Source: a virus. Taken from it: a stretch of DNA of 52,985 bases. The stretch is from positions 1-52,985 of the IMG/VR virus record IMGVR_UViG_3300036790_000826. One strand, given 5' to 3'. Shown here one piece after another: positions 6,123 to 22,680 of this stretch. The notes beneath the pieces are model-generated. The model searched no databases, was not told the DNA's origin, and was given only the letters and a program-made list of their open reading frames with translations. How positions within the stretch are numbered: the first letter of the stretch is position 1; each line of letters begins with the position of its first letter. The translations under genes and the position numbers were made by a program.

Positions 6123-6767
6123 CTACTTCATTCCGCTCAATGCCGCCTCAGCGAGATCCAGAGCATGAAGTGCCTGCCTTGCTGTCGTTGCGTGTGGCGT
6201 GCCGACCTCATCCGCAACAATCCGCTCCCATTGCGGACGACACCTTGCGGCGTAGGCTCTGAACTCCGCCTCTAATATTGCTTTTTCGCGGAGCCGCTTT
6301 AGCAATGGGCGATTGAGTCTAAGGATTCTGATTTGATATTCTGCAGGCGGCTTAAGCGCATTTACGGTCCCATCGCCGTCGACTTCAAAAAAGTTCAATC
6401 GATTTTCGATGAAAGGCTCGATCCAGCCTTTTTCACCATCGAAAGGCAAAGAGGGATCCTCTGTTGGCCAATGGTCACTCTTGAATCTATTACAGATCCC
6501 ACAGGAATGAACCAGGTTTTTAGGATCGTCGCGCAGATGCTCAAATCGCCTCTCGTTATTCGGACCAAAGGGCTTGCGCCACGGGCGAAAATGATCGGTC
6601 TCCATGCCATGTATGCCGCCGAATGAATCTTGGTGGCTACCGCAGTACCCGCAGTACTCGCGGCAGTCTTCGGAAATAGCCACCCGGTATCTCGCATAGC
6701 CATAATAAGCCCCATCGGGCCTAGTCTCATACGGGTCTCGTCGGGTGAGAGGTCCGAAATAGGCCAT
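6123..6767 (-). CDS. HNH endonuclease
   Basis: A 214-residue protein with a zinc-supported HNH nuclease core: Cys39-x2-Cys42, the ETDHF segment with Asp58-His59, Asn84 in the KNLVHSC stretch, and Cys89-x2-Cys92-Asn93. This spacing is typical of HNH proteins of restriction and defence loci that cut double-stranded DNA. The C-terminal 80 residues are helical (an EYQIRILRLNR segment follows a conserved-looking W/F-rich linker). Its ATG comes immediately after the stop of the receiver gene, which argues for coupled translation. I infer it is the nuclease effector of the operon. Confidence 0.85.
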   Translation of the reverse strand: MAYFGPLTRRDPYETRPDGAYYGYARYRVAISEDCREYCGYCGSHQDSFGGIHGMETDHFRPWRKPFGPNNERRFEHLRDDPKNLVHSCGICNRFKSDHWPTEDPSLPFDGEKGWIEPFIENRLNFFEVDGDGTVNALKPPAEYQIRILRLNRPLLKRLREKAILEAEFRAYAARCRPQWERIVADEVGTPHATTARQALHALDLAEAALSGMK

Positions 6768-7403
6768 CTATAGAGGTAGATTGCCCGCCCTAATCAGGCC
6801 TTTAACAGTTTCCACAGCTCTTGCTAGATTCTGCTCCTTTGCTCTCTCTTCGGCGAGAACAGCCGCCGTAGCCTCCCCCTCAAGTCGGTCCATTTCGGTT
6901 TGCTCCTCAGGTGTAAGGGCTTCGCGCAGGCTCTTGACCAACAAATCATGAAATCGGCTTTCTCGGTCGTTGCGGACGTCGTTAAACACGTCCAGATGCC
7001 GAAGCATTCTCGCTTTGACTGTTTTCGCCTCCTCGCTATTCGCGTCCTCAATATCCTCCTTTCCGATGATGTTTTCGACCAGGTGCTCGCATCCTGCGAA
7101 GTCTTGGCGCTCTCTCGAATGACCTGTCAGAATATATATGGGCATCTTCCCGTCTATGCCGCGTAAGTGGCTCGCGAGATCTGTCCCATTGTATCCAATA
7201 CCACCGCCTTTCATTCGTTGATCTAGAATGAAAGCAGCCGTGTCTGGCTTAGCTAGAAGCTCGTTGTAATCTGCCATAGCATGCAATGGCTCTTGGGCTA
7301 TTACTTGAATTTCCGGGTTGTCCAATAGGCTAATAAGGCCCCGAACATTGGCACGCCGAGCTGCCGCGTCCTCGTCGACAAAATAGATCCTGTTTCGCTT
7401 CAT
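6768..7403 (-). CDS. Response-regulator receiver protein
   Basis: A 211-residue protein with a receiver domain in residues 1-120: acidic pair Asp10/Glu11 (FVDED), phosphoacceptor Asp61 (AFILDQRM), Thr93 (YILTGHS) and Lys115 (NIIGKED). The remaining 90 residues are charged and helical (around TPEEQTEMDRLEGEATAA), with no HTH or other output domain that I can see. Output may therefore be by protein contact rather than by DNA binding. Its start overlaps the stop of the ATPase/kinase gene by 4 bp and the HNH gene follows without a gap, so the receiver sits between sensor and nuclease both in gene order and, by inference, in signalling. Confidence 0.85.
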   Translation of the reverse strand: MKRNRIYFVDEDAAARRANVRGLISLLDNPEIQVIAQEPLHAMADYNELLAKPDTAAFILDQRMKGGGIGYNGTDLASHLRGIDGKMPIYILTGHSRERQDFAGCEHLVENIIGKEDIEDANSEEAKTVKARMLRHLDVFNDVRNDRESRFHDLLVKSLREALTPEEQTEMDRLEGEATAAVLAEERAKEQNLARAVETVKGLIRAGNLPL

Positions 7404-9751
7404 GTCTGGTTCTGTTTCGCGGCTTTGGGAACCTTGATTTCGAATCCTGCTCCGCCCAAGTCCCCGCGATCTTTTGCGAAGATACTACCTCGCGCATGAT
7501 CCTCAACGAATGATTTCACAATGAAGAGACCCATTCCGGTACCGAATAGCTCACCACGTCTATTGCGCTTTGTACTAAAAGCGGGTAGAAAGATCATATC
7601 TTCGGTCCCTGCCTCTAGACCGATTCCACTGTCGTCAAAATTGAGACGCCACTCGTTACCCTCATCGACAATTCCCGCACGTATGCGGCGCTTTTCGGGA
7701 ACAATATCCTCCAATGCCCATGCGGCATTTGTAATCAGATTCACCACGATGCTTTCCCAATCCATTTCGTATCCAAAGATTTCGCATGCATTCTGCGGCA
7801 TCCCTGTCAGATCAACCTTTGTGTGACGCTGAATTCGCAACACCTCGTCAAATGCTTCGAATACGTCGCTGACCGTTTTCTTAAGGTCGAACTCCCGTTG
7901 CTGTCTCTTGGTTCTATTCAGATTTCCCAGTGTGAAGCTCGCGAATTTACGAACCTTCTGAGCCTCATCTGACGTATCCTGCAGCGTCTGGGTGATTTCG
8001 GCTTCAACCTGAGGGAGAACCATGAAAGATCCCTTCTTAAAGCTCTCCAAGAGCCATTTAGCATTCTTAACAACCGTTCCCGTCCAGTCCAAAGTCTCGT
8101 GTCCGAACGATGCTGCTAATATTCCTAATGACGCGAGATTCGCCATTGTGTTCTTCTGGTCTTCCGCGTCGCGATATAGCTTGGTCGATTCGGCTAAATC
8201 TAGGCGGGCCGTCTCCAACTGCTTTTGAATGTCCTCAATGACCTCCTTAAATTGCCAGTAGGACTCAGGCAGAATTGTCTCGATGGGCGGCGGCTCAGTG
8301 AATTTGGGCAGTTGGTTGGCAATGTCGCTTAGCTTCTTAAGCGCTGAATCAGCACCATCTAAGGTACTGCGAACCTTATCTTCAGCGTTTTCGAGAGGGG
8401 CCTGTTGCTGCTTAAGCGATATCTCGTAAGTCTGATGATGAACTTCGAAAAATTGAATAACTCGCCGCGCAAAGACGGCCAGGTGATCGAACGCTTTGCC
8501 CTGGAGTAGCCCTTCGCGGTTCGTTTGATCGTTCAACCCTGAATTCCGCGCATGGGTGATGAAGACGGCGCCCGCTACCTGATTGTATCCGACCCTCCAG
8601 TTGCCGGGCTTTGCGTCTTGAGCGACACCTTCCGGATTGACCATTCGCCGATAAGCTAACTTCAGCCAATCGCCACTTCCGTCCGGCTCACCGTAAGGCT
8701 TTACCCTAAAGCCATCGCGATAAATTCGGACACCTTGATTGTACTTCAGGAAATTCGCGATTTCCGCAGCCCGAAGCGTCTTCGACGCCAGCTCCACATC
8801 GCGTCGAACAAAGAAATAGAATTCCATTTTCAGCGGGCCACAATGGGGCCTGACGCCCTGTTTCTTAACGAAATCACTCCACTGAGTAGGCTTGAGTGAG
8901 TACCCGGTGCCATGTCGTGGGGACGTCATACTGATTTCCACCTGATCCAAATCGTCCAACGTCGCTACCACATTCCACGTAGCCCCCTCCAAGAGGGGCT
9001 CCGGAATCGGTACTGGTCCGTCCAAGCGCACGAAAGCGCCCCCGGTTTCCATTCGTATCGAGAAATCATTTGGTGCTTGGAATGGCGAAATAAGCAAAGC
9101 CAGCTCATTTCGTAATGCACCAATCGATTCCTCGTCCCATAGATCTTTGAGGCCACGCAAGACAAGGCGTGTGCCCTTCGGATAGTCGATCCAATCTCCA
9201 GAAATCGGATCAAGCTTTAGATTTGGTATGCTAAATAAGTCGTGCTCGACCTTTTCCAGACGGGCATCGCCCGCAACGTAGCGTCCCCAGTCTATAACTA
9301 GACGAACCCCTTCCCTGGCGTTCTCCTGAATTGAATCAATCTCAGAGACCGAACAGAGCCGGTCCAATCCTAAGCGGCCTAGTCCCTTTTCTCCGGTAAC
9401 AACCCGTTCCTTCCTAGTCTTTCTGCGTTCGGCTTTGTTAGCGGTACCGATGACCATCCAGAATTCCTTTAAGCTCTCGATTGTCATACCGTCGCCAGTG
9501 TCCTCGATGACAATTATAGCTTCTGGCTTCCCTAGATTTGCGAAACGTATGCGGACCTCGGTTGCATCGGCGTCGTAGGCATTTTTCACCAATTCCACGA
9601 TTGCAGTAATTGAACTTGAAATGCTCTCACGTCCCAACTGAAGGGCAACGCGAGCACTAACTGAAAACGAAGCCGTACCTAGTTTTGTCGGACTCTGCCG
9701 CACCAATTCCGACGCTGGATCACTCGTTCCCGGATCATTCATTTCTGCCAA
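7400..9751 (-). CDS. Dual GHKL ATPase: MutL/Hsp90-like N-terminus with C-terminal histidine kinase
   Basis: A 783-residue protein with two separate GHKL ATP-binding modules. N-terminal: the N-box ELVKNAYDADAT (53-64), G1 IEDTGDGM (82-89) and G2 TGEKGLGRLGL (119-129), as in MutL, MORC and Hsp90. C-terminal: an H-box-like ASFGHETLDW with His551, an N-box NLITNAAWAL (671-680), G1 DDSGIGL (706-712), an F-box-like FSTKR (about 725) and G2 GTGMGL (737-742), as in sensor kinases. A coiled-coil-like stretch lies between (about 450-540). There is no membrane segment, so it acts in the cytoplasm. It overlaps the methylase upstream by 13 bp and the receiver downstream by 4 bp. It probably senses DNA or foreign replication by an ATP-driven clamp and phosphorylates the receiver; the sensing part is inference. 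Confidence 0.85.
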   Translation of the reverse strand: MAEMNDPGTSDPASELVRQSPTKLGTASFSVSARVALQLGRESISSSITAIVELVKNAYDADATEVRIRFANLGKPEAIIVIEDTGDGMTIESLKEFWMVIGTANKAERRKTRKERVVTGEKGLGRLGLDRLCSVSEIDSIQENAREGVRLVIDWGRYVAGDARLEKVEHDLFSIPNLKLDPISGDWIDYPKGTRLVLRGLKDLWDEESIGALRNELALLISPFQAPNDFSIRMETGGAFVRLDGPVPIPEPLLEGATWNVVATLDDLDQVEISMTSPRHGTGYSLKPTQWSDFVKKQGVRPHCGPLKMEFYFFVRRDVELASKTLRAAEIANFLKYNQGVRIYRDGFRVKPYGEPDGSGDWLKLAYRRMVNPEGVAQDAKPGNWRVGYNQVAGAVFITHARNSGLNDQTNREGLLQGKAFDHLAVFARRVIQFFEVHHQTYEISLKQQQAPLENAEDKVRSTLDGADSALKKLSDIANQLPKFTEPPPIETILPESYWQFKEVIEDIQKQLETARLDLAESTKLYRDAEDQKNTMANLASLGILAASFGHETLDWTGTVVKNAKWLLESFKKGSFMVLPQVEAEITQTLQDTSDEAQKVRKFASFTLGNLNRTKRQQREFDLKKTVSDVFEAFDEVLRIQRHTKVDLTGMPQNACEIFGYEMDWESIVVNLITNAAWALEDIVPEKRRIRAGIVDEGNEWRLNFDDSGIGLEAGTEDMIFLPAFSTKRNRRGELFGTGMGLFIVKSFVEDHARGSIFAKDRGDLGGAGFEIKVPKAAKQNQT

Positions 9752-11115
9752 ATTCGAATCGAGGCAATCGACTCAATGGTCAAATGGCGGCAACGAATGC
9801 GCCTGTTTAGGTGTCGATTGGTCTCTCTAGTCTTGAGAACGCGAAGCAGTTTTCTGCACGTCGCCAGTTTTCGATCTTTTGGCTGACAGACTATCAAGTG
9901 ATTCTCAACTGCGACTTCATCTGCACCCGTAATGATCGTAGCGGCAGCGCGGTAGGCGTGTTCGGGACGCGAAGTGCGACGGATGGCGACAAATGGAGTT
10001 TGGTGGATGCCGCCTGAAAATCTGACGCTTTCTGGAAACGACTTCATTTCCTTCCACGGCGGAACGCATCGCGGGTGAATGTAAGGATAGCGCGGGCCGT
10101 TTTCCTCATTTCTGAAAGGCACGACTCGGCCAACATTGACGGCAAACAAGCTGCCAACTGTGGCTTTTGAATTTCGATACTCCGGCCACCTCTTTAAGTT
10201 GGGTTCCGATCTTTCCCTCTTACGGAGATGCACAAGGAATACGTCTATGTCCGCGCTTTCGTCGAAAATGCCGAAGGGCTTTACCAACATTATTTGAGCT
10301 CTCTCGCCCACATGTTTTCTCCACTTTCTGTAATTGGAGCCCGAACGTAAAACCTCCGGAAGAATTGCTAGAATTTCTCCACCAGGGGTCATTCGGTCCA
10401 ATGAGTTGTCGAGGAATATTGCAGCCATTGAGACTTTGCCACGGCCCCACGGACATTTCTTCGGCGCCCTCCCCAATCCGAACGGTGGATTAAGCAAAAT
10501 GTGTGTTGGGTCCGTTGCACCGACTTTGGGTGCGAGGCCGTCCGCCTTAAGAATGTTCGGAAAGTAATCCCGCCAATTTTTGGGAATAGGACCAAAATCC
10601 CGTTTCCTTTGTCGTGCCAACAAGACGAGACGGTTCTTCACCGCATCAATAAATTCAGAGTAAACATCGCAGCCGCTGAGCAGCCCGCCCCACAGCTTCA
10701 GGGTTCCTTCGACGGTGCCGCCAAGTGGGAGCTTTTGCGCTGCCGCTAACAAAAGGTCCCCAGCCCCACATGCCGGGTCGTGGATCATTAACCCCTTACC
10801 ACGAGGTCGACTCAGGTGTCCCAAGAGTTCTGCGGCCAAATGAGAGCCAGTAAAAAAAGTCCCCATTTTTCGCCGCTTAGAAAGCCCGACAACTTTGCGG
10901 AGCTCTTCCGCCGCCTGACCATTTAACGAAGCATCCACTGCTGTATGCCAGGCTCGGTCGTTTCGTGGCTCAATCGCTAGCTTTTCAAGCGTGTCGACGT
11001 ACCGGCGGTAGCAAGCTACCGGAGAATTACCTTGGCGCGTCTTGGGTAGCATGGGCTTCTGAAAGCTAACACTAACTTCCGATGCAGGAAGGCGAAATTT
11101 TCGCCACAGGGTCAC
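9739..11115 (-). CDS. N6-adenine DNA methyltransferase (HsdM-like)
   Basis: A 458-residue protein. Motif I, the SAM site, is DPACGAGDLL (113-122); the catalytic motif IV is NPPF (209-212); the order I then IV fits gamma-class N6-adenine methylases of the type I/HsdM kind. The FFTGSHLAAELL segment before motif I (86-98) matches the usual HsdM lead-in. After residue 330 there is a region that could recognise DNA, but I see no separate specificity subunit. Its start overlaps the upstream small gene by 4 bp (ATGA). It likely marks host DNA as self for the HNH nuclease. Confidence 0.85.
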   Translation of the reverse strand: MTLWRKFRLPASEVSVSFQKPMLPKTRQGNSPVACYRRYVDTLEKLAIEPRNDRAWHTAVDASLNGQAAEELRKVVGLSKRRKMGTFFTGSHLAAELLGHLSRPRGKGLMIHDPACGAGDLLLAAAQKLPLGGTVEGTLKLWGGLLSGCDVYSEFIDAVKNRLVLLARQRKRDFGPIPKNWRDYFPNILKADGLAPKVGATDPTHILLNPPFGLGRAPKKCPWGRGKVSMAAIFLDNSLDRMTPGGEILAILPEVLRSGSNYRKWRKHVGERAQIMLVKPFGIFDESADIDVFLVHLRKRERSEPNLKRWPEYRNSKATVGSLFAVNVGRVVPFRNEENGPRYPYIHPRCVPPWKEMKSFPESVRFSGGIHQTPFVAIRRTSRPEHAYRAAATIITGADEVAVENHLIVCQPKDRKLATCRKLLRVLKTRETNRHLNRRIRCRHLTIESIASIRIWQK

Positions 11116-11372
11116 ATCCGTGATTCATCAATTTGCCTGCGGATTAGCTGAACAAAGTAAAGTGTTTCATCTTCCGTTAGGGTGCCTGCCCCTTTCTCAA
11201 GATCTTCAATGAAGATGCCAATTCCAACCGATGACCGCAGTCCCTTCTCGGTCCAACCGATTTCTGAAACAGGTGCCTTGCGTTGCCGGGTGATCGTGGA
11301 CGCTCGGTCAACCCAGCCTGCGGCCATCAGCTTTCGGACCAGGCTATAACGGGCAGATGGATTTGTCGGCAT
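11112..11372 (-). CDS. Small winged-helix-like protein
   Basis: An 86-residue protein from the ATG at 11372, 5 bp after the stop of the DUF4145-like gene; an alternative start at 11429 would overlap that gene by 53 bp. The N-terminal half (ARYSLVRKLMAAGWVDRAST, then WTEKGLRS) has the helix-helix-wing pattern of small winged-helix proteins. A C-terminal helix TEDETLYFVQLIRRQ follows. It may regulate the operon, for example at the palindrome at 12200, or serve as a DNA-binding subunit of the methylase. Both roles are inference. Confidence 0.6.
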   Translation of the reverse strand: MPTNPSARYSLVRKLMAAGWVDRASTITRQRKAPVSEIGWTEKGLRSSVGIGIFIEDLEKGAGTLTEDETLYFVQLIRRQIDESRM

Positions 11373-11376
11373 CCGT

Positions 11377-12183
11377 CTAAAAAAGACTCTTACTCGGGCG
11401 ACTGCTGGACGGTCCTCGCTTGCGGGCAAATTTTTTGGCCAGCCCTTTGGCCAGTCCTGCCACTCTATCTCCGCGCTCCTCGATTATTTCGACAAGGGCG
11501 TGTTCGAAAACTTCGAATGCATCGAGCAGGTCATCCCGAGAAAGCTTCGAATTATGGCTTCCTGCATTCCCAAGCCATTTCAAAGCCATTAAATGGTCTC
11601 CAACGAGCGGAGAATTAAGTTTGAATTTGGCCAACCGGGCGTGGAGCGACAGTTCTACGAGCCTATTGTGTTGATTCCTTCCCCATCGCTTTACCTTTGA
11701 ATGATCCATTAGCGCTTCGAGGGCCATTCGAAGGCGTCCGGCAGATGCCGGACGATCTGATGCGTAGAGAGCAAATGCAGCTGCTAGGCTCTCCTTTACG
11801 CTTTCAGGGCAAGATTCAGGCACTTTGAAGAGGGGCGGCATTGGATGCCAAAAGAGCGGTTCGAAATAGTCGTCCCAATCCCAACCCTCCGGACTATTCA
11901 CCTGCTGGACGCCGCCCTTTCCTGCAATTGCGACTTTCTGCTTACACTTTTGGTTTACGCAGGTCGCCCAGGCGGTGAATCGGTAATCAGTCCATTCAGG
12001 ATCGAATTCATCATCTGCATGGCCTATTTTCGACTGAGCCGTTTCGTAGATGATTAGCGAATTCGGAACCAGTTTTAGCGTTCCCGTCGCGCAAATGGGA
12101 CATGGCCACGCAGCACACCCGTACTTGTAAAGATTCGTCGTCCAAAGCTCGCGCTTCATTTTGCCGTACTCGACGTCATCCAC
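11377..12183 (-). CDS. Zn-ribbon protein with DUF4145-like domain
   Basis: A 268-residue protein, first gene of the operon. Residues 28-85 hold a probable zinc ribbon (CPICATG, later CVNQKCK). Residues 130-240 look like the DUF4145 helical domain (an ALYASDRPASAGRLRMALEA stretch, then LKWLGNAGSH), which is known from the N-terminus of many HsdR restriction subunits and from stand-alone defence-associated proteins. The C-terminal tail is basic and Ser-rich. The context suggests an accessory subunit of the restriction complex. A later start at Met9 is possible. Confidence 0.75.
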   Translation of the reverse strand: MDDVEYGKMKRELWTTNLYKYGCAAWPCPICATGTLKLVPNSLIIYETAQSKIGHADDEFDPEWTDYRFTAWATCVNQKCKQKVAIAGKGGVQQVNSPEGWDWDDYFEPLFWHPMPPLFKVPESCPESVKESLAAAFALYASDRPASAGRLRMALEALMDHSKVKRWGRNQHNRLVELSLHARLAKFKLNSPLVGDHLMALKWLGNAGSHNSKLSRDDLLDAFEVFEHALVEIIEERGDRVAGLAKGLAKKFARKRGPSSSRPSKSLF

Positions 12184-12199: not shown

Positions 12200-12215
12200 T
12201 AGCGTTTAAACGCTA
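12200..12215. promoter_or_regulatory. 16-bp perfect palindrome upstream of the defence-like operon
   Basis: TAGCGTTTAAACGCTA reads identically on both strands and ends 17 bp upstream of the operon's first start codon (12183). The position suggests an operator, perhaps for the small winged-helix protein encoded as the second gene. A related half site, AGCGC, lies a few bases further upstream. Confidence 0.5.
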
Positions 12216-12394: not shown

Positions 12395-12399
12395 GAGGT

Positions 12400-12419
12400 T
12401 TCCCATGGGGTTTAAGAAT
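12400..12419 (-). repeat. Left terminal transposase-binding-like site (L1)
   Basis: TTCCC-N6-TTTAAGAAT, six bases inside the left TG terminus. It mirrors the site at the right terminus (51800-51819) in inverted orientation and with the same 6-base spacer, as expected for recognition by the transposase at both ends. Confidence 0.65.
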
Positions 12420-12526
12420 CAGTGGAAATAGGGCTCATCAGCTCGAATGAGCACGAAGCCCAACGACTTATAAAATCACCGCCGCGCAGGACGTCCGATG
12501 AGAATGAATCGTCCAAAATCGGCCAG

Positions 12527-12546
12527 ATTCCCAAACGTTTAGGAAT
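12527..12546 (-). repeat. Internal left-end transposase-binding-like site (L2)
   Basis: ATTCCC-N5-TTTAGGAAT, a second copy of the end motif about 128 bp inside the first, in the same orientation. The 5-base spacer matches the internal copy at the right end (51779-51798) rather than the terminal copies. The rest of 12420-12585 shows no gene and probably carries the end of the early transcript. Confidence 0.6.
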
Positions 12547-12585
12547 GGCACTGACCTACGAGTGGATTGGAAAACAGGTGTCATT

Positions 12586-13164
12586 TTAGAAGAGCTGCGG
12601 CTGGTCTGCAGAACCCTTTTTCTCCGCCTGCAGGCGCTTTAAACGGGCCTGTTTCTCTCGAAGGGTCTCAGCCTTCGCCTGGGCCACTTCCCCCGTCCTC
12701 TGGGCCATCAGCTCGGGCAGCGTCGGTCCCAGGGCTTTGCCGATCAGGGCCATGGCCTGGCTAACATGGGATCCGGCCCTGAGCGCCTGGTCCCGGATCT
12801 CCTCGGAATTGACCCCCACGTAGCGGTCGACGACGGCCTGGAAATACGGCCAGAAGTCGCGGACCTTATCGGCGCGTTGCTGGGCGCCGAGCGTCGAGAT
12901 GGCCATAATGATATGCGTGGCCAGGGCCTCCCCGTCCAGAAACCAGCCGCGGCGCCAAAGCGCCAGGACCATGCGCTCAAGATAGATCCGGCATTGCTCT
13001 ACGCGGCGGTCCTTCGTGTCGCCTGCCCAGGCCCAATCGAGGCGCTCCGACAGCTGCTTCCGGACCCAGCGGTCGAACCTGATCAGCCGCTCCTCCGGCC
13101 TCTGGCTGCGATCCAGCCAGCTCTCTCGCTTCCAATCGTCCAGACGCCTGCCGAGGAGGTTCAT
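12586..13164 (-). CDS. Hypothetical protein, last gene of the early operon
   Basis: A 192-residue protein from the ATG at 13164, which overlaps the upstream stop (ATGA). Trp- and Arg-rich in the first 100 residues (starts MNLLGRRLDDWKRESW), with a long charged helix at the C-terminus (around AQAKAETLREKQARLKRL). No motif I recognise. As the gene nearest the left end, it is in the position where transposable phages often keep accessory functions. Confidence 0.65.
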   Translation of the reverse strand: MNLLGRRLDDWKRESWLDRSQRPEERLIRFDRWVRKQLSERLDWAWAGDTKDRRVEQCRIYLERMVLALWRRGWFLDGEALATHIIMAISTLGAQQRADKVRDFWPYFQAVVDRYVGVNSEEIRDQALRAGSHVSQAMALIGKALGPTLPELMAQRTGEVAQAKAETLREKQARLKRLQAEKKGSADQPQLF

Positions 13165-13535
13165 AGCGAAAGGGTCGGCTGGTCGGTCGGCTGGGGTGCC
13201 AGCCGGGTGTAACGGTGATACCGACGGCGGAGGGCCAGGCCCTGCTGCAGATACTTCTTTCCGGCGCTTTCCCACCGGCTGGCGCAGGCGTCGACCTCGG
13301 CAATCTCGCACGAACTGCTGAGTAGCTTGTAGCCTGGGGATCCGGGCGACCGCATGATGCGCCCGTCGCTGGCCTCGGCGATCGCAGCCAGGCGCCGAAT
13401 ATGGAGGCGGTTCTCCTGGGCGATGAACTCCCGCTTCACCCAGCCGCGGCCGACAAGGAAACGGCAAATCTTGTCGATCTCCTCTTCAGTGACCGGGGCC
13501 CCAGCCATTTCGAGAAACTCGACTTGCTCGTTCAT
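13161..13535 (-). CDS. Hypothetical early phage protein
   Basis: A 124-residue protein starting MNEQVEFLEMAGAPVTEEE. The first 60 residues (EEIDKICRFLVGRGWVKREF) look like a winged-helix segment, so a DNA-binding role is possible. The rest is basic. It overlaps its downstream neighbour by 4 bp. Confidence 0.6.
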   Translation of the reverse strand: MNEQVEFLEMAGAPVTEEEIDKICRFLVGRGWVKREFIAQENRLHIRRLAAIAEASDGRIMRSPGSPGYKLLSSSCEIAEVDACASRWESAGKKYLQQGLALRRRYHRYTRLAPQPTDQPTLSL

Positions 13536-13537
13536 GG

Positions 13538-13765
13538 TCAGATCGGCTCGGTGATGTAGACCCGGCGGTCGGAGCGAGTCGGGCGCGCCTGCGTTGTGGC
13601 CGTAAATAAGACAAACTCACCTTCCGGGTGGAGACGCTGCAGCCTGAGCAGCTCCGTCTCGGCTTCATCCTGGTAGCAATGGACGAACGACGGCCTCCGG
13701 AGCGCAGGGACCTTCTGACCGTTGAAGTGGTAGACGTTCTGGGAAATATCGACGATCAGGAACAT
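13538..13765 (-). CDS. Hypothetical small early phage protein
   Basis: A 75-residue protein starting MFLIVDISQNVYHFNGQKV, with several beta-strand-like stretches and no hydrophobic anchor. It lies 2 bp from the next gene and overlaps the stop of the previous one by one base, so it is part of the same polycistronic message. Function unknown. Confidence 0.55.
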   Translation of the reverse strand: MFLIVDISQNVYHFNGQKVPALRRPSFVHCYQDEAETELLRLQRLHPEGEFVLFTATTQARPTRSDRRVYITEPI

Positions 13766-14262
13766 CAGAACGGATTCGGGCTCGCCGCCCGGTCTTTGAA
13801 TTTGCCGAGCATCGTGGCGCGGCGGATTTGAGCCAGCCTGGCAAACAAGATCCCCCGGAGCTGGGTAAGCTGCGCCTCGTCGAGCTCCTGGTAGGTCATC
13901 ACCCGGAACACCCGCTTTGCGAGGCCGTTCAGGTAGGCATTCTCGTTGCCCGGCCGGTCGACGATTCCAGTGACGACCTCTCGGACGTTCGCGATCAGGG
14001 CTTGCTTGCGCATAGCCGGCTGCTCCTCGGCCCGGAGCTGGGCCTCCAGGTTGCCTCCATCGTGGACCGCCCGGAAGGTTGCGAGGATCTTGTCCAGGTC
14101 AGGGTTTGTGAAGTCCTTGCTCGACTTCGAATGTCCCAGGGCGCGCTCGTGCAGAGCGTGGCGCATGTCGTCGGTCTGGGACGCGCTCTTACCATGGGCG
14201 CGATACCAGTCGCGGGTCAGAGCCCACTCACGCCAGTAAAGGCCGGTCTGGGCGGCATTCAT
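13765..14262 (-). CDS. Hypothetical early phage protein
   Basis: A 165-residue, mostly helical protein (starts MNAAQTGLYWREWALTRDW). The position in the early operon of a transposable phage and the YW-reW pattern invite comparison with GemA/Mor-region proteins, but I cannot confirm a family. It overlaps the upstream Cys-rich gene by 4 bp. Confidence 0.6.
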   Translation of the reverse strand: MNAAQTGLYWREWALTRDWYRAHGKSASQTDDMRHALHERALGHSKSSKDFTNPDLDKILATFRAVHDGGNLEAQLRAEEQPAMRKQALIANVREVVTGIVDRPGNENAYLNGLAKRVFRVMTYQELDEAQLTQLRGILFARLAQIRRATMLGKFKDRAASPNPF

Positions 14263-14534
14263 GCAGCAGCCTTTTTCGCAAAGGGCCGGCGGGAGAAGTG
14301 CAGGCAGGCCGGGGCGTTGGGTTTGATATAGCTGCCCGGCCTATCCCAAACACGGGCCGCACGCTCGCACTTGTAGCCCTCCTCGCCGGGGTTGGTGATC
14401 TTGATGCAGCTCAGGCACTGGACGCAGCGCGACTTCTTCGGGCCTGTGCCGGGCCTAGCTGCGTAGCCGATCTTCCGGAGGCGAGGCTGCTGCGCCTCCG
14501 GAAGTGGCGAACCGAATAGATCCCTCGCAACCAT
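14259..14534 (-). CDS. Small Cys-rich protein, probable zinc binder
   Basis: A 91-residue protein with CVQCLSC in the middle, followed by KCERA and a C-terminal CLHF: together enough Cys/His for one zinc site. Basic overall. It could be a small nucleic-acid-binding protein; no family is recognised. Confidence 0.55.
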   Translation of the reverse strand: MVARDLFGSPLPEAQQPRLRKIGYAARPGTGPKKSRCVQCLSCIKITNPGEEGYKCERAARVWDRPGSYIKPNAPACLHFSRRPFAKKAAA

Positions 14535-14540
14535 GGAGGG

Positions 14541-15338
<798 letters not shown>

Positions 15339-15347
15339 TGGTCGATT

Positions 15348-15773
15348 TCAGCTCTGTTTCAGGACTTTAACGGTGACCTCGATCACGCCGGTCCTGGGGT
15401 CGGCGAGGATCAAGAAAGCATGCGCGGACAGGTCGAGTAGGCGTCCCCGGCTGACGAGGTCGAAGCGGGGGCCCCTGTCGGTGACGGTCACGACGACCTT
15501 GCGGTCGCCGCGTGTGACCAGGAGGCGGGTGCCAAGCGCGTATTCCCAGCTGGCGCAGGTGAGCGCATCCGGGTTGAAGGGGCGCCCGTTCGCCATCAGG
15601 CGGCCGCGGCATTCGTTGCCGTACCAGCTCGCCAGGCACCAGCGGCCGACGCGGTCGGCGATGGCGTCAGTGACCATGCAGACGGCCGTGACGGGCACGA
15701 GGAGGGCCGCCGCGGCCGCCACGGTGGCAATAAGGAAAAGAGCTAAGAGACCAGTCTGGAGCCAGGTCTTCAC
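15348..15773 (-). CDS. RlpA-like double-psi beta-barrel protein, membrane-anchored
   Basis: A 141-residue protein from a GTG at 15773 that overlaps the upstream stop (GTGA). An N-terminal hydrophobic anchor (LLALFLIATVAAAAALLVPV) is followed by an RlpA-like domain: ASWYGNECRGRLMANGRPF, ALGTRLLV, then VTVTDRGPR with the Asp that is catalytic in RlpA, and LDLSAHAF. RlpA proteins are lytic transglycosylases or peptidoglycan binders. No classical endolysin is seen in the late lysis region, so this early-operon enzyme may supply wall cleavage, for host lysis or for another purpose. The first segment has no lipobox Cys; it looks like a signal anchor. Confidence 0.75.
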   Translation of the reverse strand: MKTWLQTGLLALFLIATVAAAAALLVPVTAVCMVTDAIADRVGRWCLASWYGNECRGRLMANGRPFNPDALTCASWEYALGTRLLVTRGDRKVVVTVTDRGPRFDLVSRGRLLDLSAHAFLILADPRTGVIEVTVKVLKQS

Positions 15774-16048
15774 TGATCGAGGACGGGCTGAATCTTCCGT
15801 TCGTGGCGGATGATCATGGCGTGGACCAGGGCCGCAGTGCCCCGGAAGAGCGCCTGGTATTGATAGGGCACCGGGATCCCGAGCCAGCAGCGGCCGGCGG
15901 GACGGTATTCGCCTCTGATGGTCTTCCTGGCCGTTACCTGGGCCGTCCGCGGGCAGATCTCGACCTCCCAGTCCGGATGGGCGTGGCGCAGCCGCTTGAC
16001 GGCTGCGCCGACGTCCAGGGCCGGGAGTTCTAGCGCGGCGGTCGTCAT
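15770..16048 (-). CDS. Hypothetical early phage protein
   Basis: A 92-residue protein starting MTTAALELPALDVGAAVKRL, with an HPDWEVEICPRT segment and a basic middle. It overlaps both neighbours by 4 bp. Function unknown. Confidence 0.6.
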   Translation of the reverse strand: MTTAALELPALDVGAAVKRLRHAHPDWEVEICPRTAQVTARKTIRGEYRPAGRCWLGIPVPYQYQALFRGTAALVHAMIIRHERKIQPVLDQ

Positions 16049-16590
16049 TTATGGGCCGTGGCTGTGTCCTTCGGCTCGATGAAGAAGCTCTCCTCCTGGG
16101 CAACCCTGCAGCCGAGTTCCGACAGCGCGGCACTGCTGAGGCTGCCGGGCTTGGCGGCTGGCATGGTGGCGGCCGCGATCAGCTTCGCCTTGTCGACCTC
16201 CTCCTTCGTGCGGATGAACCTCGTCATGGCCCTGTCGGCCTTCAGGGCGACGAGCACCTTCGCCCAGGTCTTCTTCGACAGCGTCTTCAGCGCGGGCATT
16301 CCCAGGCGGAAGCCGTAGGTCGCCAGCGCCGTGGTCGCCGACTTGGCCTTGTCGGGGAGTAGCTCCTCCCGGTGCTCGGTAGCGTACTGCTCAGCGAGGA
16401 TCCTCAGGGCCTTTATCGACGCCACGATCGCGCGGGCCCCTTCGTCGTGGTTTTCGCGGACCCGCTGGAGCTCGGCGTCGCGCAGCGCCTCCCAGCTCTG
16501 AAGGTCGTTCGATTGGACGCAAATCTGATCGATGACACGCTCGAAGTCCGTCCGCGTTGTGAGGCACCCGTCTTTGATTCGTTTGCTCAT
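16045..16590 (-). CDS. gam: Mu Gam-like host-nuclease inhibitor
   Basis: A 181-residue protein close to the length of Mu Gam (174). Long N-terminal helices (TDFERVIDQICVQSNDL onwards), the central TTALATYGFRLGMPALKTLS and KTWAKVLVALKADR match the family pattern of a Ku-like protein that binds DNA ends and protects the transposable phage DNA from exonucleases. It lies downstream of transposition genes, as in other Mu-like phages. Confidence 0.75.
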   Translation of the reverse strand: MSKRIKDGCLTTRTDFERVIDQICVQSNDLQSWEALRDAELQRVRENHDEGARAIVASIKALRILAEQYATEHREELLPDKAKSATTALATYGFRLGMPALKTLSKKTWAKVLVALKADRAMTRFIRTKEEVDKAKLIAAATMPAAKPGSLSSAALSELGCRVAQEESFFIEPKDTATAHK

Positions 16591-16593
16591 GGC

Positions 16594-17124
16594 TCAGGCG
16601 TGGACGAGCGGACGGGGGCGGAACGTACGGACCGAGGCCCGACCGGCCTTTGCAGTCACTTCAGCGAAGTCCTCGATCATCAGTCGGTCTTCCGGCCTCG
16701 GACCCATCTTGAGGCCGATGCTCTCGCCGAAGGTCTTTGTGCCATCCGGCCCGAAGGAGACGAATCCGGCCGCGACCGGCAGGTCGCCCATCTTCGAGAA
16801 CGCTTGGGCGATCTCGAAATGCGTAGCTGGGTCGATCGTGAAGAAGTATCGCTCGACGCCGCTCTTGGAGCGCATCGCTACATACCGCAGCGCGTACTCT
16901 GGCGGCCGAGCCAGGTCGACGAACACTTGGAGGGCACGATAGCCGTTGTTTTCCGCGACCTTCGTCGCAGCTTCCCTCGTGGCGTAATTGCCCAGGGGCT
17001 CTTTATCAGCCGGCGTCTGGACGCTATATCCTCCGCGCTCGTTTTGCGCGACGGTCGCGGTTTCCGGCTCGGTCGAGGGGCTTGCGGCCCCGAATAGCTT
17101 ACTGATGAACGCTGGCAGTTTCAT
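16594..17124 (-). CDS. Hypothetical early phage protein
   Basis: A 176-residue protein from the ATG at 17124 (MKLPAFISKLFGAASPS), which overlaps the upstream stop by 4 bp. Mixed alpha/beta. The N-terminal 15 residues are amphipathic rather than a signal peptide. No recognised domain. Confidence 0.6.
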   Translation of the reverse strand: MKLPAFISKLFGAASPSTEPETATVAQNERGGYSVQTPADKEPLGNYATREAATKVAENNGYRALQVFVDLARPPEYALRYVAMRSKSGVERYFFTIDPATHFEIAQAFSKMGDLPVAAGFVSFGPDGTKTFGESIGLKMGPRPEDRLMIEDFAEVTAKAGRASVRTFRPRPLVHA

Positions 17125-17375
17125 GTGAATGCTCCTTCCGCTGTGATCTGGTTGCCGTCTGGGGTTACAATTTTGACGATGTCCAAGGGGTGCTCGCCTC
17201 CGTCCTCGCGCCAGTGGCCGTCGCCGGTCCATAGCTCGTGGGCCTCCAGCGGATGGCAGAACGCCGCCTTGAGCCGGCGGAAGCCCTGCACGCGGAATCC
17301 ATCGAGCTTGATGCGGCCGGTGACGGCCGCGGGATCGCCGTTTCGCAGGACCACTGGCGTGGGTTTGAGGCTCAT
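17121..17375 (-). CDS. Hypothetical early phage protein
   Basis: An 84-residue protein starting MSLKPTPVVLRNGDPAAVTG, beta-rich in appearance, with a HELWTGDGHW segment. It overlaps both neighbours by 4 bp. Function unknown. Confidence 0.55.
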   Translation of the reverse strand: MSLKPTPVVLRNGDPAAVTGRIKLDGFRVQGFRRLKAAFCHPLEAHELWTGDGHWREDGGEHPLDIVKIVTPDGNQITAEGAFT

Positions 17376-17608
17376 GACCTGGCGAGCGGCCGTGCCGACG
17401 CATTGTAGATCCTGTAGCCGCTGCCGGCGTTGACGTGCCTGAGTACCACCCGCCGCTGAGCGCAGTGGAAGTACTTAGCCGCGGCGGCGAGGGCCGCGTA
17501 GATATAGTCGTTGGTGCTGCTGGCTGTCCGGGCACCCCTCCCGGCTCCTATGCGGGCCATGTGGGTGCCACCCTTATCAACGACGCGGACTGTGGCAGAG
17601 GTCTTCAC
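17372..17608 (-). CDS. Hypothetical small basic early protein
   Basis: A 78-residue basic protein starting MKTSATVRVVDKGGTH. It is 8 bp downstream of the MuB-like gene. No motif recognised; the positive charge would fit nucleic-acid binding. Confidence 0.5.
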   Translation of the reverse strand: MKTSATVRVVDKGGTHMARIGAGRGARTASSTNDYIYAALAAAAKYFHCAQRRVVLRHVNAGSGYRIYNASARPLARS

Positions 17609-17616
17609 GGCGCCCT

Positions 17617-18711
17617 TTACTTCGCCGCGTGCTGGATCTCGCCCATGGCCTGCTTGCGAAGCGCCAGGGACTTGAAAAAATCGTCCTCCAGCATTCCGCG
17701 CTTGGAGGCGCTCGCGATCTTGCTGGCGACTTCGAGCAACTTCCCGAGTGTCCGGAGCCGGCCGCCGGCCTCGTCGTTTACCAGGGCGAAAGCGGCGTTC
17801 TGCAGGGTCGCTGTCGGCTTCGGGAAATACTGCTGCAGTATGGGCAGCACGTCCGCGTTCTCGATGTGCCGGTAGAGACGCACTGGCAGGCCCACGCGGC
17901 CGAGGACCTGCTCGAACTGGTACTTGAGCTTCTTCAGCGTGTCATCGAACCGCTGGGTGGCAATCAGCCCGACGCCGCACTTCGTCTTGTCGTGGATGTA
18001 TCGGATGATCTCCAGCTTGACCGGGTTGATGTCGCGCCGGGTGTCGCCCGGCAGGAGGCGGTGGGCCTCGTCCAGTATAAGGATCCGGTTCGAGTTAAAA
18101 GACCGCAGGAGGGCCTCCAGCTGCATGTCCTGGCTACCGTTGACGTTGTGCCCGCAGCCCCTGCAGAGCGCGCGAAGGAGGGTCTTGGCACCCCCTATCG
18201 GCGGGATCTCCACGAGGACGCTCCTGCCGTGGTTGTTGGCGTCGCGCCAGGCTGTCGTCGAGATCGTCTTGCCCTGGCCGGACTCGCCGACGATGAGGGT
18301 GATCGAGTTGTTGGCTAGCGCGTAGTCCAGGCCCGAGAAGATCAGGTCGCTGATCGAATTCCTGGCGAACTTGCCGCGCTGGATCCCGATGCGGTTCGTG
18401 ACGACCCGCTTGTAGCTGTTGATCGACTTGACGATGTTCTGGTAGTTGCCCTCGTAGGTGCCCTTGAGCACGCGGTAGACCGTCGTGTTGTTGTAGTTGA
18501 TGGCCTTCCCCGCGTCCTTGTAGTTGAGGCCCTCGTCGAGGATGTGCTGGTGGAACCAGAGCAGCGCCTCGGAGATGGCGGGATCAAGGTGCCGCCAGTT
18601 TTCAAGGTTGAGCGGTATATTGATCCTCGCGGCCGCCGAAGCGGCGCGCGCCTTGTCGGAGGCGTCGACCTCGGACTCTATATCATTGACGGGTTCCTCT
18701 GTGGTGTTCAT
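17617..18711 (-). CDS. MuB-like AAA+ transposition ATPase
   Basis: A 364-residue protein. The N-terminal HTH (around residues 64-83, KDAGKAINYNNTTVYRVLKG) is followed by an AAA+ core: Walker A GESGQGKT (142-149), Walker B ILILDEAH (210-217), then IATQRFDDTLKK as a sensor-like region. MuB binds target DNA, activates the MuA transposase and provides target immunity. It lies directly downstream of the transposase gene, as in Mu. It is longer than MuB (312) through an acidic N-terminal extension and a longer C-terminal helical domain. Confidence 0.88.
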   Translation of the reverse strand: MNTTEEPVNDIESEVDASDKARAASAAARINIPLNLENWRHLDPAISEALLWFHQHILDEGLNYKDAGKAINYNNTTVYRVLKGTYEGNYQNIVKSINSYKRVVTNRIGIQRGKFARNSISDLIFSGLDYALANNSITLIVGESGQGKTISTTAWRDANNHGRSVLVEIPPIGGAKTLLRALCRGCGHNVNGSQDMQLEALLRSFNSNRILILDEAHRLLPGDTRRDINPVKLEIIRYIHDKTKCGVGLIATQRFDDTLKKLKYQFEQVLGRVGLPVRLYRHIENADVLPILQQYFPKPTATLQNAAFALVNDEAGGRLRTLGKLLEVASKIASASKRGMLEDDFFKSLALRKQAMGEIQHAAK

Positions 18712-18743
18712 GCGTGTGTCTCCTCTGTTTGTTGTCTATTGGG

Positions 18744-18767
18744 CCCCGGCCGTTTGCGCGGCCGGGG
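18744..18767. terminator. GC-rich hairpin between transposase and MuB-like genes
   Basis: A 9-bp perfect stem (CCCCGGCCG with CGGCCGGGG) around a 6-base loop. On the plus strand it is followed by a T-rich run (TCTTGTTTTT), the form of a Rho-independent terminator, although the genes here run on the minus strand. It could stop antisense transcription, or on the sense side reduce expression of the MuB-like gene relative to the transposase. Confidence 0.5.
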
Positions 18768-18787
18768 TCTTGTTTTTGGTGGAAATG

Positions 18788-21004: not shown

Positions 21005-21011
21005 GGAGGCT

Positions 21012-21410
21012 TTAAGTTGAGGATTGAGCCGGGCTGGGCGGATTCGCAGGATCCGCCGATGTGGCCGTGGAAACGCGGGATTGACCCAGAGCTCGCCGCG
21101 CTGCGGGAACGTGTAGCGGTGCTGGAAGCGCTGCTAAAATCTCAGGGAGAGAATCTCGGATTGCTGAACCGTCAGCTCCAAGCAGCCCAGGCTCGCTTTG
21201 AAGAGACGCGCGGAATTGCGCTAGAGAGAGGACTTTACCAGACTGACATTCTAGTGCGGCTCGCAGAGCGCCTCGGAGTTCACACAGGTGATCGGCCGCC
21301 TGACGCCAACCGCGCAGATCCCGGCATTCCTCCTGCGTCTGCATCAGGAGCAGATAGGCCAGTTCCAGGCGCGCGCGGCTGAGCGCAGCGAAAGGGAGCG
21401 GAGCGCTCAT
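21012..21410 (-). CDS. Hypothetical early phage protein
   Basis: A 132-residue protein starting MSAPLPFAALSRARLELAY. I chose the ATG at 21410 since it overlaps the upstream stop (ATGA), as elsewhere in the operon. Helical N-terminal 70 residues, then a disordered Pro/Ser/Ala tail. A frame of 121 codons lies opposite on the plus strand (21017-21382) and also looks protein-like, with a coiled-coil-like stretch; operon logic favours the minus strand. Confidence 0.5.
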   Translation of the reverse strand: MSAPLPFAALSRARLELAYLLLMQTQEECRDLRGWRQAADHLCELRGALRAALECQSGKVLSLAQFRASLQSEPGLLGADGSAIRDSLPEILAALPAPLHVPAARRALGQSRVSTATSADPANPPSPAQSST

Positions 21411-22099
21411 ACGGGGATCGCTGCGCCGACCTTGGCCTGGCCGCGGAGGCGCTTCCATTGGCCGTAGATGTCCTCCATGTTCTGGTCCAGGGACTCCAGC
21501 TGCTGGGGCGTCAGGCGCATCAGCGCCTCGGCTGATGTCACGATCGAGCGGAAGCCGGACAGCCGCTCAGCCACGTCCGCGAAGAAATCCATCTGGACGC
21601 CAGCATTCGGGCCGCCTTCGCCCCCTAGCGCCGCTTTGATTCCTGCGCTCTTGATGCCGTGCTTTATCAGCAGCTCGTGCAGGCTTAGGTTGCCAATGAA
21701 CCCGGAGGCCTTCTCAACAAAGGCGCGCTTTTCTCCTTCGAGGTTGCCCAGGACGAGCGCGTCTTGTCCCTTGGGGAGCGCGATTAGCTCGGCCTTCGTT
21801 AGGCGGCTTTTCTCGGCGAATGTCATCGCCAGTCGCATGAGGTAGTTCGCATAGCGGTCACCGAATTCGGCTATGTTCTGCTCGACCCACTTGCCGAACG
21901 TGCCGTGGGGCATCGCCTCCTTCATCCGGCAGAGGGTTAAGCCGATCAGGAGCCCAAATGTGGCCTCCCGGTTTCGGAGAACCTGCATGTGGCGCAGGCC
22001 CTCGACTACATATAGCTGGAGCCGCGTGATCTCAGCCGCGTCCCCTTTTGGGCTGCTCGCTGAGATAAGCGCGAGTGTGGAAGTTGAAGGCTTAGGCAT
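21407..22099 (-). CDS. DUF3102-like phage protein
   Basis: A 230-residue protein from the ATG at 22099 (MPKPSTSTLALISASSPK). Residues about 30-110 follow the DUF3102 pattern: an alternating helix with RNREATFGLLIGLTLCRMKE, then HGTFGKWVEQNI and a YLMRLA helix. The family is common in phage and plasmid regions with no firm function. The C-terminal part is helical. It overlaps both neighbours. Confidence 0.65.
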   Translation of the reverse strand: MPKPSTSTLALISASSPKGDAAEITRLQLYVVEGLRHMQVLRNREATFGLLIGLTLCRMKEAMPHGTFGKWVEQNIAEFGDRYANYLMRLAMTFAEKSRLTKAELIALPKGQDALVLGNLEGEKRAFVEKASGFIGNLSLHELLIKHGIKSAGIKAALGGEGGPNAGVQMDFFADVAERLSGFRSIVTSAEALMRLTPQQLESLDQNMEDIYGQWKRLRGQAKVGAAIPV

Positions 22100-22418: not shown

Positions 22419-22419
22419 T

Positions 22420-22641: not shown

Positions 22642-22680
22642 AACCGAACACGCAAGTCAAATGTTCGGTTTCGTTCGGTT
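22625..22680. promoter_or_regulatory. Divergent operator/promoter between repressor and early operon
   Basis: Repeated half sites occupy this short region. CGAACGAAACCG lies at 22625-22636, and its reverse complement CGGTTTCGTTCG at 22666-22677; CATAACCGAAC at 22639-22649 is mirrored by GTTCGGTTATG at 22673-22683, which runs into the repressor's start codon. This is the lysis/lysogeny switch: the repressor and the Ner-like protein are the likely readers. Confidence 0.7.

What the first reader, a model, noticed from the sequence alone, without database searches (positions are those of the whole stretch)
6123..12183. Candidate undescribed defence system: six overlapping genes combining methylase, dual GHKL kinase, receiver and HNH nuclease
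Seen: six minus-strand genes with 4-bp or 13-bp overlaps or gaps of 0 to 5 bp. The order is Zn-ribbon/DUF4145-like, small winged-helix-like, N6-adenine methylase (DPACGAGDLL, NPPF), GHKL ATPase plus histidine kinase, receiver, HNH endonuclease. Known: MutL/MORC-type GHKL ATPases occur in restriction-modification clusters (work by Iyer, Abhiman and Aravind, cited from memory), and DUF4145 is common in HsdR. Inference: a restriction system whose nuclease is released by a phosphorelay rather than by an HsdR motor. I know of no named system with exactly these parts (Detocs has a kinase and receiver, but no methylase and different architecture). The island lies beside a tRNA and differs in base composition from the flanking DNA.
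Basis: partly seen in the sequence, partly recalled or inferred. Interest (0 to 1): 0.88.

Follow-up and report, generated by a model that had tools for sequence, protein, structure and literature searches.

The report
Four-gene methylase, kinase, switch, nuclease module
A widespread set of four bacterial genes appears to join a DNA-marking enzyme, a MORC-type DNA-clamp ATPase fused to a signalling kinase, a phosphate-operated switch and a DNA-cutting enzyme, which looks like a restriction system whose cutter is turned on by a signalling relay.

Summary
The genes are real and intact. Four of the six form a conserved operon: N6-type DNA methylase, a MORC-type ATPase fused to a histidine kinase, a ~215-aa receiver, and a PtuB-like HNH nuclease. 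The DUF4145 gene and the small gene in front were found in no other examined locus. Strict adjacency gave 59 quartets among 111 kinases, in 11 named phyla; all 59 kinases lie in one 64-row clade, with relay and active-site residues kept in 52-59 of 59. Kinase, receiver and nuclease co-evolve (Mantel 0.79-0.86), while the methylase is repeatedly replaced. A sister kinase clade has an MBL-fold hydrolase instead of HNH in 10 of 10 loci. Best reading: a restriction-like defence module in which methylation status is read by methylase plus MORC domain and relayed by His-Asp phosphotransfer to the nuclease; the relay and anti-phage action are inferred. Prior art: Bellieny-Rabelo 2021 (PMC8011034) described a related kinase/receiver pair beside R-M genes; the window pair matches neither of its Pfam domains. 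I found no named system with this quartet. The island is not phage cargo: a 39.4-kb Mu-like prophage (12395-51825) lies beside it; without that prophage it starts about 232 bp from tRNA-Val.

The parts
9739..11115 (-). N6-type DNA methylase (458 aa), motif I DPACGAGDLL, motif IV NPPF
   Evidence: N6_Mtase 17.8 bits, below cut-off; PADLOC mad2 45.7 bits; N209 58, P210 59, P211 59 of 59 quartets
7400..9751 (-). MORC-type GHKL ATPase module (about residues 30-443) joined through long helices to a histidine kinase (predicted phospho-acceptor His551, second ATPase domain about 616-779)
   Evidence: model pLDDT 80.2; MORC3 5ix2_B Z 19.4, 302 aligned, rmsd 3.5; kinases ThkA, HK853, CpxA Z about 20-22; His551 59 of 59
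6768..7403 (-). stand-alone receiver (211 aa) with a C-terminal two-helix hairpin and no recognisable DNA-binding domain
   Evidence: model pLDDT 90.7; PDB matches; D10 58, D/E11 59, D61 59, T93 57, K115 52 of 59
6123..6767 (-). HNH nuclease (214 aa), PtuB-like, the predicted effector
   Evidence: Pfam HNH 23.3 bits; PADLOC PtuB 42.2 bits; H59, N84, N93, C39, C89, K96 59 of 59
11377..12183 (-). DUF4145 protein (HEPN-like per PMC3710099, passages read) with Cys pairs that look like a zinc ribbon; first gene of the operon here; accessory, not conserved
   Evidence: DUF4145 51.8 bits; no match outside the window among 5,876 ORFs
11112..11372 (-). small protein (86 aa from ATG), unknown, accessory
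   Evidence: no profile match; no match outside the window among 5,876 ORFs
12200..12215 (.). 16-bp perfect palindrome TAGCGTTTAAACGCTA, operator-like, 16 bp before the first start codon
   Evidence: one of two perfect 16-mers in the window
12395..51825 (.). Mu-like prophage that now separates the island from tRNA-Val (context, not part of the system)
   Evidence: MuA/MuB-like genes, GemA, four strict end-type repeats and a 5-bp TTGAT at both junctions, sibling synteny

Best explanation
A four-component restriction-like defence module in a genomic island next to a tRNA-Val gene. The methylase marks the host's own sites. Its engagement with unmarked (phage or plasmid) DNA is read by the MORC ATPase, which closes as an ATP-driven clamp. 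Clamp closure activates the kinase half fused to it; His551 is phosphorylated and passes the phosphate to Asp61 of the receiver. The phosphorylated receiver, through its helical hairpin, binds and releases the HNH nuclease, which cuts DNA. Shown here: gene set, conservation, folds, intact catalytic residues, kinase-receiver-nuclease co-evolution, methylase replacement, effector replacement in a sister clade. Inferred: that methylation is the sensed signal, that the methylase carries target specificity, that the receiver acts on the nuclease directly, and that the outcome is anti-phage.
For: 59 strict quartets of 111 kinases of at least 600 aa, 52 of 81 from genome contigs; 11 named phyla among the 50 of 58 that carry a phylum label. 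In the kinase tree all quartets sit in one 64-row clade, SH-like support 99. Reverse test from the nuclease: 9 of 9 strong HNH matches lie beside receiver and kinase (five are seeds' own genomes), 0 of 12 weaker HNH matches lie in such an operon. Relay and active-site residues of the four proteins kept in 52-59 of 59. Co-evolution: Mantel HK-RR 0.86, HK-HNH 0.82, RR-HNH 0.79, HK-MT 0.52. Methylase replaced while the other three stay: L036/L072 identities 0.70/0.55/0.57 for HK/RR/HNH but 0.30 for the methylase, which sits on the other side of the operon; L026/L027 0.63/0.53/0.53 but 0.18. L069 has a different (DPPY-type, read by eye) methylase in that slot. The receiver model shows only a helical hairpin after the receiver fold, so transcription is not its likely output. 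Sister clade: MBL-fold hydrolase at the nuclease slot in 10 of 10, five of them the seeds of the profile. A GHKL domain in front of a nuclease is already shown to work in defence in the Shedu protein VcSduA (PMC12137116, passages).
Against: No experiment. Nothing shows that methylation state is the signal, or that the phosphate reaches this receiver. Methylase swapping also fits a methylase that only protects the host, and the methylase too correlates with the kinase beyond chance (0.52; best of 999 permutations 0.18). The neighbour scan gave 128 PADLOC families for 117 neighbours against 39 for 117 control proteins, but the tool does not say how many proteins carry a hit and the families are redundant, so defence-island enrichment is only suggestive. 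The loci were chosen by kinase similarity to the window, so 59 of 111 is not a population frequency. Some members of the wider kinase family have no methylase match (Streptomyces MBL loci, most fused-receiver loci), so the kinase family can work without this methylase.
Confidence: 0.55

Rival explanations
1. An abortive-infection module: the kinase senses an infection signal unrelated to methylation, and the HNH nuclease then degrades DNA without sequence choice, host chromosome included. The methylase is protection or an independent part.
For: The HNH is closest to PtuB of Septu and to PADLOC's HNH_I-A (which I take to be the retron I-A nuclease). Effectors differ between kinase clades (HNH, MBL), as in signal-activated abortive systems (Detocs, recalled). 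The HNH tracks the methylase only weakly (Spearman 0.34), so it may have no matching specificity.
Against: Of the 64 clade members, 59 have a methylase of the same broad family by the strict rule and L016 has one just beyond a split HNH; L069 has a different methylase; in L035, L068 and L092 the contig ends before a downstream methylase could be seen. That is odd if methylation were irrelevant.
Confidence: 0.25
2. An ordinary type II restriction-modification pair (HNH plus methylase of one specificity) whose expression is timed by a local two-component regulator.
For: R-M systems commonly carry regulators (established knowledge); the island has an operator-like palindrome.
Against: The receiver ends in a plain helical hairpin in the model, not a recognisable DNA-binding domain; the nuclease tracks kinase and receiver (0.82, 0.79) far better than the methylase (Spearman 0.34); methylases change while the nuclease stays.
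Confidence: 0.1
3. A two-component regulator unrelated to defence, with nuclease and methylase for DNA housekeeping (repair or recombination).
For: MORC and MutL ATPases share ancestry with repair enzymes (Iyer 2008, PMC2292703, sections 5 and 6 read); no phage data.
Against: Patchy distribution (5 of 395 Bacteroidota genomes with a strong HNH match, one of them the seed's own), quartets on plasmids (3) and viral contigs (3), foreign base composition.
Confidence: 0.1

Closest known systems
HEF_HK / Response_reg_2 two-component-like pairs linked to R-M systems (Bellieny-Rabelo et al. 2021, PMC8011034)
   Same: N-terminal HATPase_c_3, central phospho-acceptor helix, C-terminal HATPase_c, adjacent receiver, R-M genes nearby, HNH_2 the best-represented endonuclease domain nearby
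   Different: Window kinase and receiver do not match PF19191 or PF19192 at E <= 0.1. HEF_HK proteins match the kinase profile made here (7 of 7, E 2e-68 to 3e-52), but in those short loci (about 3.2 kb) an ORF matching the receiver profile was found in 1 of 7, weakly (E 5e-4). The paper stresses C5 cytosine methylases and proposes signalling that controls R-M systems; it defines no methylase-kinase-receiver-HNH quartet in the parts I read.
Prokaryotic MORC/paraMORC ATPases in R-M operons (Iyer, Abhiman, Aravind 2008, PMC2292703)
   Same: MORC-like GHKL-S5 ATPases beside methylases and, for paraMORC1, HNH nucleases; proposed DNA-looping role
   Different: The word 'receiver' does not occur in the text, nor 'two-component' or 'phosphorelay'
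Septu (PtuAB) and PADLOC HNH_I-A
   Same: HNH effector of the PtuB kind
   Different: No PtuA-type ATPase in the operon; a kinase and receiver instead
VcSduA, a type I-D Shedu protein with a GHKL ATPase domain (PMC12137116, passages)
   Same: GHKL ATPase proposed to control a nuclease in a validated anti-phage system
   Different: Single protein with a PD-(D/E)xK nuclease; no kinase, receiver or methylase
Detocs
   Same: Kinase plus receiver controlling a toxic effector (recalled; the paper is not held)
   Different: No methylase, no MORC-type ATPase (recalled)
BbrUII/HgiDII GHKL restriction enzymes
   Same: N-terminal GHKL part matches NF050001 (76.8 bits over residues 29-234)
   Different: Far below that family's cut-off of 550 bits; the nuclease is a separate protein here

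Membership tests
HEF_HK/Response_reg_2 TCS-like system | HEF_HK domain PF19191 in the kinase | tested here: not met
   No match at E <= 0.1; the family exists in the library and was found in 7 of 299 Pseudomonadota genomes
HEF_HK/Response_reg_2 TCS-like system | Response_reg_2 PF19192 in the receiver | tested here: not met
   No match at E <= 0.1; Response_reg PF00072 weakly instead. That PF19192 is in this Pfam copy was not checked separately
HEF_HK/Response_reg_2 TCS-like system | HATPase_c_3 at N-terminus and HATPase_c at C-terminus, adjacent receiver, R-M neighbour | tested here: met
MORC-like ATPase | GHKL plus S5/transducer module of the MORC fold | tested here: met
   MORC3 5ix2_B Z 19.4, 302 aligned, rmsd 3.5 over model residues 30-443; MORC2 and SMCHD1 among Foldseek matches
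Histidine kinase | acceptor His, N, G1 and G2 boxes | tested here: met
   H551, N671, N675, D707, G709, G711, G737, G739, G741 in 59 of 59
Receiver | acidic pair, phospho-acceptor Asp, Thr, Lys | tested here: met
   D10 58 and D/E11 59, D61 59, T93 57, K115 52 of 59; fold
Septu | PtuB-like HNH nuclease | tested here: met
   PADLOC PtuB1 PDLC00337 42.2 bits
Septu | PtuA ATPase encoded next to it | tested here: not met
   Among the operon's proteins only the HNH protein matches PtuA models, over model positions 49-205 of 726-733; the kinase matches none at E <= 0.1
MADS | MAD2 methylase at NCBIfam cut-off | tested here: not met
   NF047738 15.9 bits against 720
Type II GHKL restriction enzyme (BbrUII/HgiDII) | NF050001 at cut-off | tested here: not met
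   76.8 against 550 bits
Detocs | DtcA/DtcB/DtcC architecture | not tested
   No Detocs profile was searched as such; the paper is not held
Anti-phage defence system | protects against phage | not testable with these tools
   needs plaque assays

The most novel reading that the evidence does not exclude
A distinct class of restriction in which recognition (an exchangeable methylase), DNA clamping (MORC ATPase), signal (His-Asp phosphorelay) and destruction (an exchangeable HNH or MBL effector) sit on separate proteins: a modular phosphorelay immune platform across bacteria that would reveal a function for prokaryotic MORC ATPases as methylation-sensing inputs of kinases.
Probability: 0.4. Interest if true: 0.87.

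Novelty: new variant of a known kind. Interest (0 to 1): 0.7.

Why it matters
If true, it would be, to my knowledge, the first restriction system gated by a two-component phosphorelay, and it gives the poorly understood prokaryotic MORC-type ATPases a testable role: the sensory input of a histidine kinase. Natural swaps of the methylase and of the effector mean that specificity and killing could be tested by exchanging genes between natural relatives.

Tried and rejected
Phage cargo: rejected. The window is a virus record, but the only four strict copies of an end-type repeat sit at 12400-12419 and 12528-12546 (minus) and 51779-51797 and 51800-51819 (plus), with TTGAT at both junctions. Of six sibling loci, none has a tblastn match to five of the six island proteins (the small one was not run) or to three proteins left of it, while two (L162, L163) hold the phage gene nearest the proposed end. 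Against this: the motif was drawn up after looking at both ends; it was not found at the ends of those siblings; a plain local alignment of the two end regions scored no better than the best shuffle (28 against 28); and sibling records may end where they do because the contig ends. The boundary rests on motif count, duplication and synteny together.

DUF4145 and small gene as core parts: rejected (one-sequence profiles, E <= 1e-3, so remote relatives could be missed). tRNA 3'-end duplication in 1-12400: no exact match of 10 or more bases. Sigma-70-like promoters (4 found, 4.9 expected) and terminators (8, 10.0) in 4500-13000: as in shuffles. Single-sequence scan of genome contigs: no relative; the alignment scan worked. 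DNA similarity to phage records: none for the island or for 25000-49000. Klebsiella quartet DNA in E. coli genomes: none at megablast sensitivity. CHAT/caspase-like look of two other downstream proteins (L087, L106): by eye only, no Pfam match, not claimed.

Rows dropped before counts: kinase ORFs under 600 aa (among them L002, whose kinase gene is split over three ORFs, and L007, 599 aa, both beside receiver, HNH and methylase; L114; and short second kinase ORFs in several loci), and L113, which has no kinase match. The looser count is 62 loci with all four families anywhere in the locus. L067's receiver is a 70-aa ORF; it stayed in the 59 but was left out of the models. Structure models used 54 (receiver) and 47 (kinase) rows of the 59. 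The neighbour scan used 117 of 159 candidate neighbours, in list order, to stay within the residue limit; the control used 117 of 124 ORFs from 15 stretches. A9 and A10 are not meaningful alignments; they served only to hand those sets to the scanner.
Full report
What is there. The six ORFs are present and intact. Profiles identify DUF4145, two GHKL ATPase domains in one protein, and HNH above cut-off; the methylase and receiver score below Pfam's cut-offs. A model of the receiver (pLDDT 90.7) shows the five-strand receiver fold followed by two long helices; the 50 best PDB matches are, by title or by recall of the named protein, response regulators or receiver domains, except three titled sensor kinase or sensor protein. 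A model of the 783-aa protein (pLDDT 80.2) matches the MORC3 ATPase cassette over residues 30-443 (Z 19.4, 302 aligned, rmsd 3.5) and the catalytic half of histidine kinases over about 541-779 (Z up to 21.7). So the 'dual GHKL kinase' is a MORC-type ATPase fused to a histidine kinase.

The conserved unit is four genes. Profiles built from seed sets were run on all ORFs of these loci. With adjacency on one strand (either strand for a downstream methylase) and gaps under 300 bp, 59 of 111 kinases of at least 600 aa have methylase, receiver and HNH in place: 52 of 81 from genome contigs, 3 of 22 from viral contigs, 3 of 7 from plasmids, and the window. Order is kinase-receiver-HNH-methylase in 46, one more with the methylase convergent, and methylase-kinase-receiver-HNH, as in the window, in 12. 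Median gaps are 2 bp (kinase-receiver) and -4 bp (receiver-HNH). Of the 58 quartets besides the window, 50 carry a phylum label, in 11 phyla, 33 of them Bacteroidota; 8 have none. No relative of the DUF4145 or small gene turned up outside the window among 5,876 ORFs.

Kinship. In a FastTree of the 111 kinases, the 59 quartets and five other loci form one group of 64 (support 99); the window's nearest are a Verrucomicrobiota, a Planctomycetota and a Chloroflexota locus at 40-44% kinase identity. The five: L035, L092 and L068 stop at a contig end; L016 has its HNH split in two ORFs with the methylase right behind; L069 has a different, DPPY-type methylase in the slot. The tree has long branches and uneven composition, so only the large split is relied on. 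Reverse test: an HNH alignment matched 5 of 6 chosen genomes (the sixth is a fused-receiver genome) and 13 of 395 Bacteroidota genomes at E <= 1e-10. All 9 loci with strong matches (E below 1e-49, L115-L123) have receiver and kinase next door; 7 also show the methylase beside the HNH, and the other two (L117, L119) are the window-type L011 and L013 loci, whose methylase lies upstream beyond the short stretch. Of 12 weaker HNH matches (L124-L135) none has a receiver, and one (L130) has a kinase-like ORF on the other strand. Five of the nine strong cases (L115-L119) are the seeds' own loci, so four (L120-L123) are independent of the query.

Residues. Across the 59: kinase His551, N, G1 and G2 boxes 59; N-terminal ATPase Asn57 57, Asp84 58, G120, K122, G123, G125 and R126 59; receiver D10 58, D/E11 59, D61 59, T93 57, K115 52; HNH His59, Asn84, Asn93 and two Cys 59, Asp58 56; methylase N209 58, P210 and P211 59. 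So both ATPase sites, the relay residues, the nuclease and the methylase look active in most members.

What moves together. Pairwise identities of kinase, receiver and nuclease are tightly correlated (Mantel 0.86, 0.82, 0.79), kinase and methylase less (0.52); none of 999 permutations reached any of the four values. Close pairs show replacement: kinases 62-75% identical with methylases 16-31% identical (L026 or L077 against L027 or L029, except the like pairs; L072 against L036, L041, L047, L049; L015 against L023), in the L072 and L015 cases with the methylase on the other side of the operon. In other pairs the methylase is the more conserved (L031/L032 0.83 against 0.67), so this is exchange rather than mere fast change. 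A nuclease that follows the kinase and not the methylase is hard to square with a plain type II pair. It fits a core that is told by the methylase, or by DNA marked by it, when to cut.

What else the kinase drives. In a sister clade of ten kinases the slot after the receiver holds an MBL-fold hydrolase in 10 of 10 (five were the seeds of that profile; in L008 an insertion sequence splits it), and no quartet locus has that protein; six of the ten have a homologous methylase upstream (five by the strict rule). In a further group of 21 the receiver protein itself is 340-465 aa long, with C-terminal parts in three clusters by phmmer (15, 5 and 1) and no match above Pfam's cut-off in the three tested (L018, L010, L111). 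Exchange of the downstream part is the strongest sign that the receiver controls an effector.

Place in the genome. The window is a virus record with a Mu-like phage: MuA- and MuB-like proteins, large terminase and portal, GemA. The prophage appears to span 12395-51825 (39,431 bp), by end-type repeats in inverted order (4 strict copies in 53 kb; with two mismatches allowed, 0.05 per strand in 20 shuffles) and TTGAT at 12390-12394 and 51826-51830. Two of six related loci hold the homologue of ORF 12586-13467; their loci end 193 and 680 bp after it, at or within 83 bp of the contig end, and none of the six has the island or left-hand proteins tested. To the right lie tRNA-Val and a semialdehyde-dehydrogenase gene, taken as host DNA. 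So the island stands in the chromosome or another element, and before the phage came its first gene was about 232 bp from tRNA-Val. The stretch 1-4.8 kb holds weak PHROG matches to a tape-measure protein, a small terminase and a replication initiator, without a Pfam match above cut-off; perhaps a second element.

Prior art. Bellieny-Rabelo et al. 2021 (PMC8011034; [quoted passage not shown] Iyer et al. 2008 (PMC2292703; sections 5 and 6 and found passages read) put paraMORC ATPases with methylases and HNH nucleases. HEF_HK kinases are homologous to the ones here (7 of 7 matched by the kinase profile) but distinct: the window proteins match neither Pfam domain. PADLOC 2.0.0 gave no strong match to kinase or receiver: the kinase matches REase_II models through its GHKL part (39.4 bits), the receiver none; relatives touch the candidate models PDC-M43B and PDC-M60B at 22-27 bits. 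DefensePredictor 2026 (PMC13092281, passages and legend text) lists a predicted system with HATPase and REC; whether it is this quartet cannot be told. Ten full-text searches of open-licence PMC papers gave no named system with these four parts; most subscription papers and all bioRxiv preprints are outside that library.

Verdict. A real, widespread, coherent operon, best read as a phosphorelay-gated restriction-like module; a new variant of the kinase/receiver R-M systems sketched in 2021. The mechanism is inferred at the steps named.

Noticed in passing
12395-51825: Mu-like prophage with inverted end-type repeats and a 5-bp TTGAT at both junctions; the IMG/VR record extends beyond it on both sides.
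   Followed up: partly
L046, L048, L054, L063, L065, L084, L008, L079, L088, L090: Sister system: the same kinase and receiver with an MBL-fold hydrolase in place of HNH, 10 of 10 (five were profile seeds; split by an insertion sequence in L008); six with a homologous methylase upstream.
   Followed up: partly
L018, L025, L037, L042, L043, L050, L053, L056, L062, L085, L089, L094, L110, L006, L055: Receivers fused to a related C-terminal part of about 220-330 aa; the one tested (L018) has no Pfam match; possibly an undescribed effector or regulator.
   Followed up: partly
L006; Campylobacter plasmid records: Relatives of the kinase on 43 Campylobacter plasmid records; in L006 kinase and 340-aa receiver face a C5 cytosine methylase.
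   Followed up: no
L002: Klebsiella variicola plasmid carries a window-type locus (kinase 38% identity), with an annotated anti-phage Ppl gene in the same 16-kb stretch; its kinase gene is split over three ORFs.
   Followed up: no
5275-5763: PIN-domain (VapC-like, below cut-off) protein on the plus strand just left of the island.
   Followed up: no
12200-12215: Perfect 16-bp palindrome before the operon's first start codon, a possible operator.
   Followed up: no
99-4757: Genes with weak matches to tape measure, small terminase or excisionase, and replication initiation, outside the Mu-like prophage; perhaps a satellite or other element.
   Followed up: no
14411-15338: Simple repeat-rich coding stretch giving long overlapping ORFs of repeated GGGSLGG or ARWAA units.
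   Followed up: no
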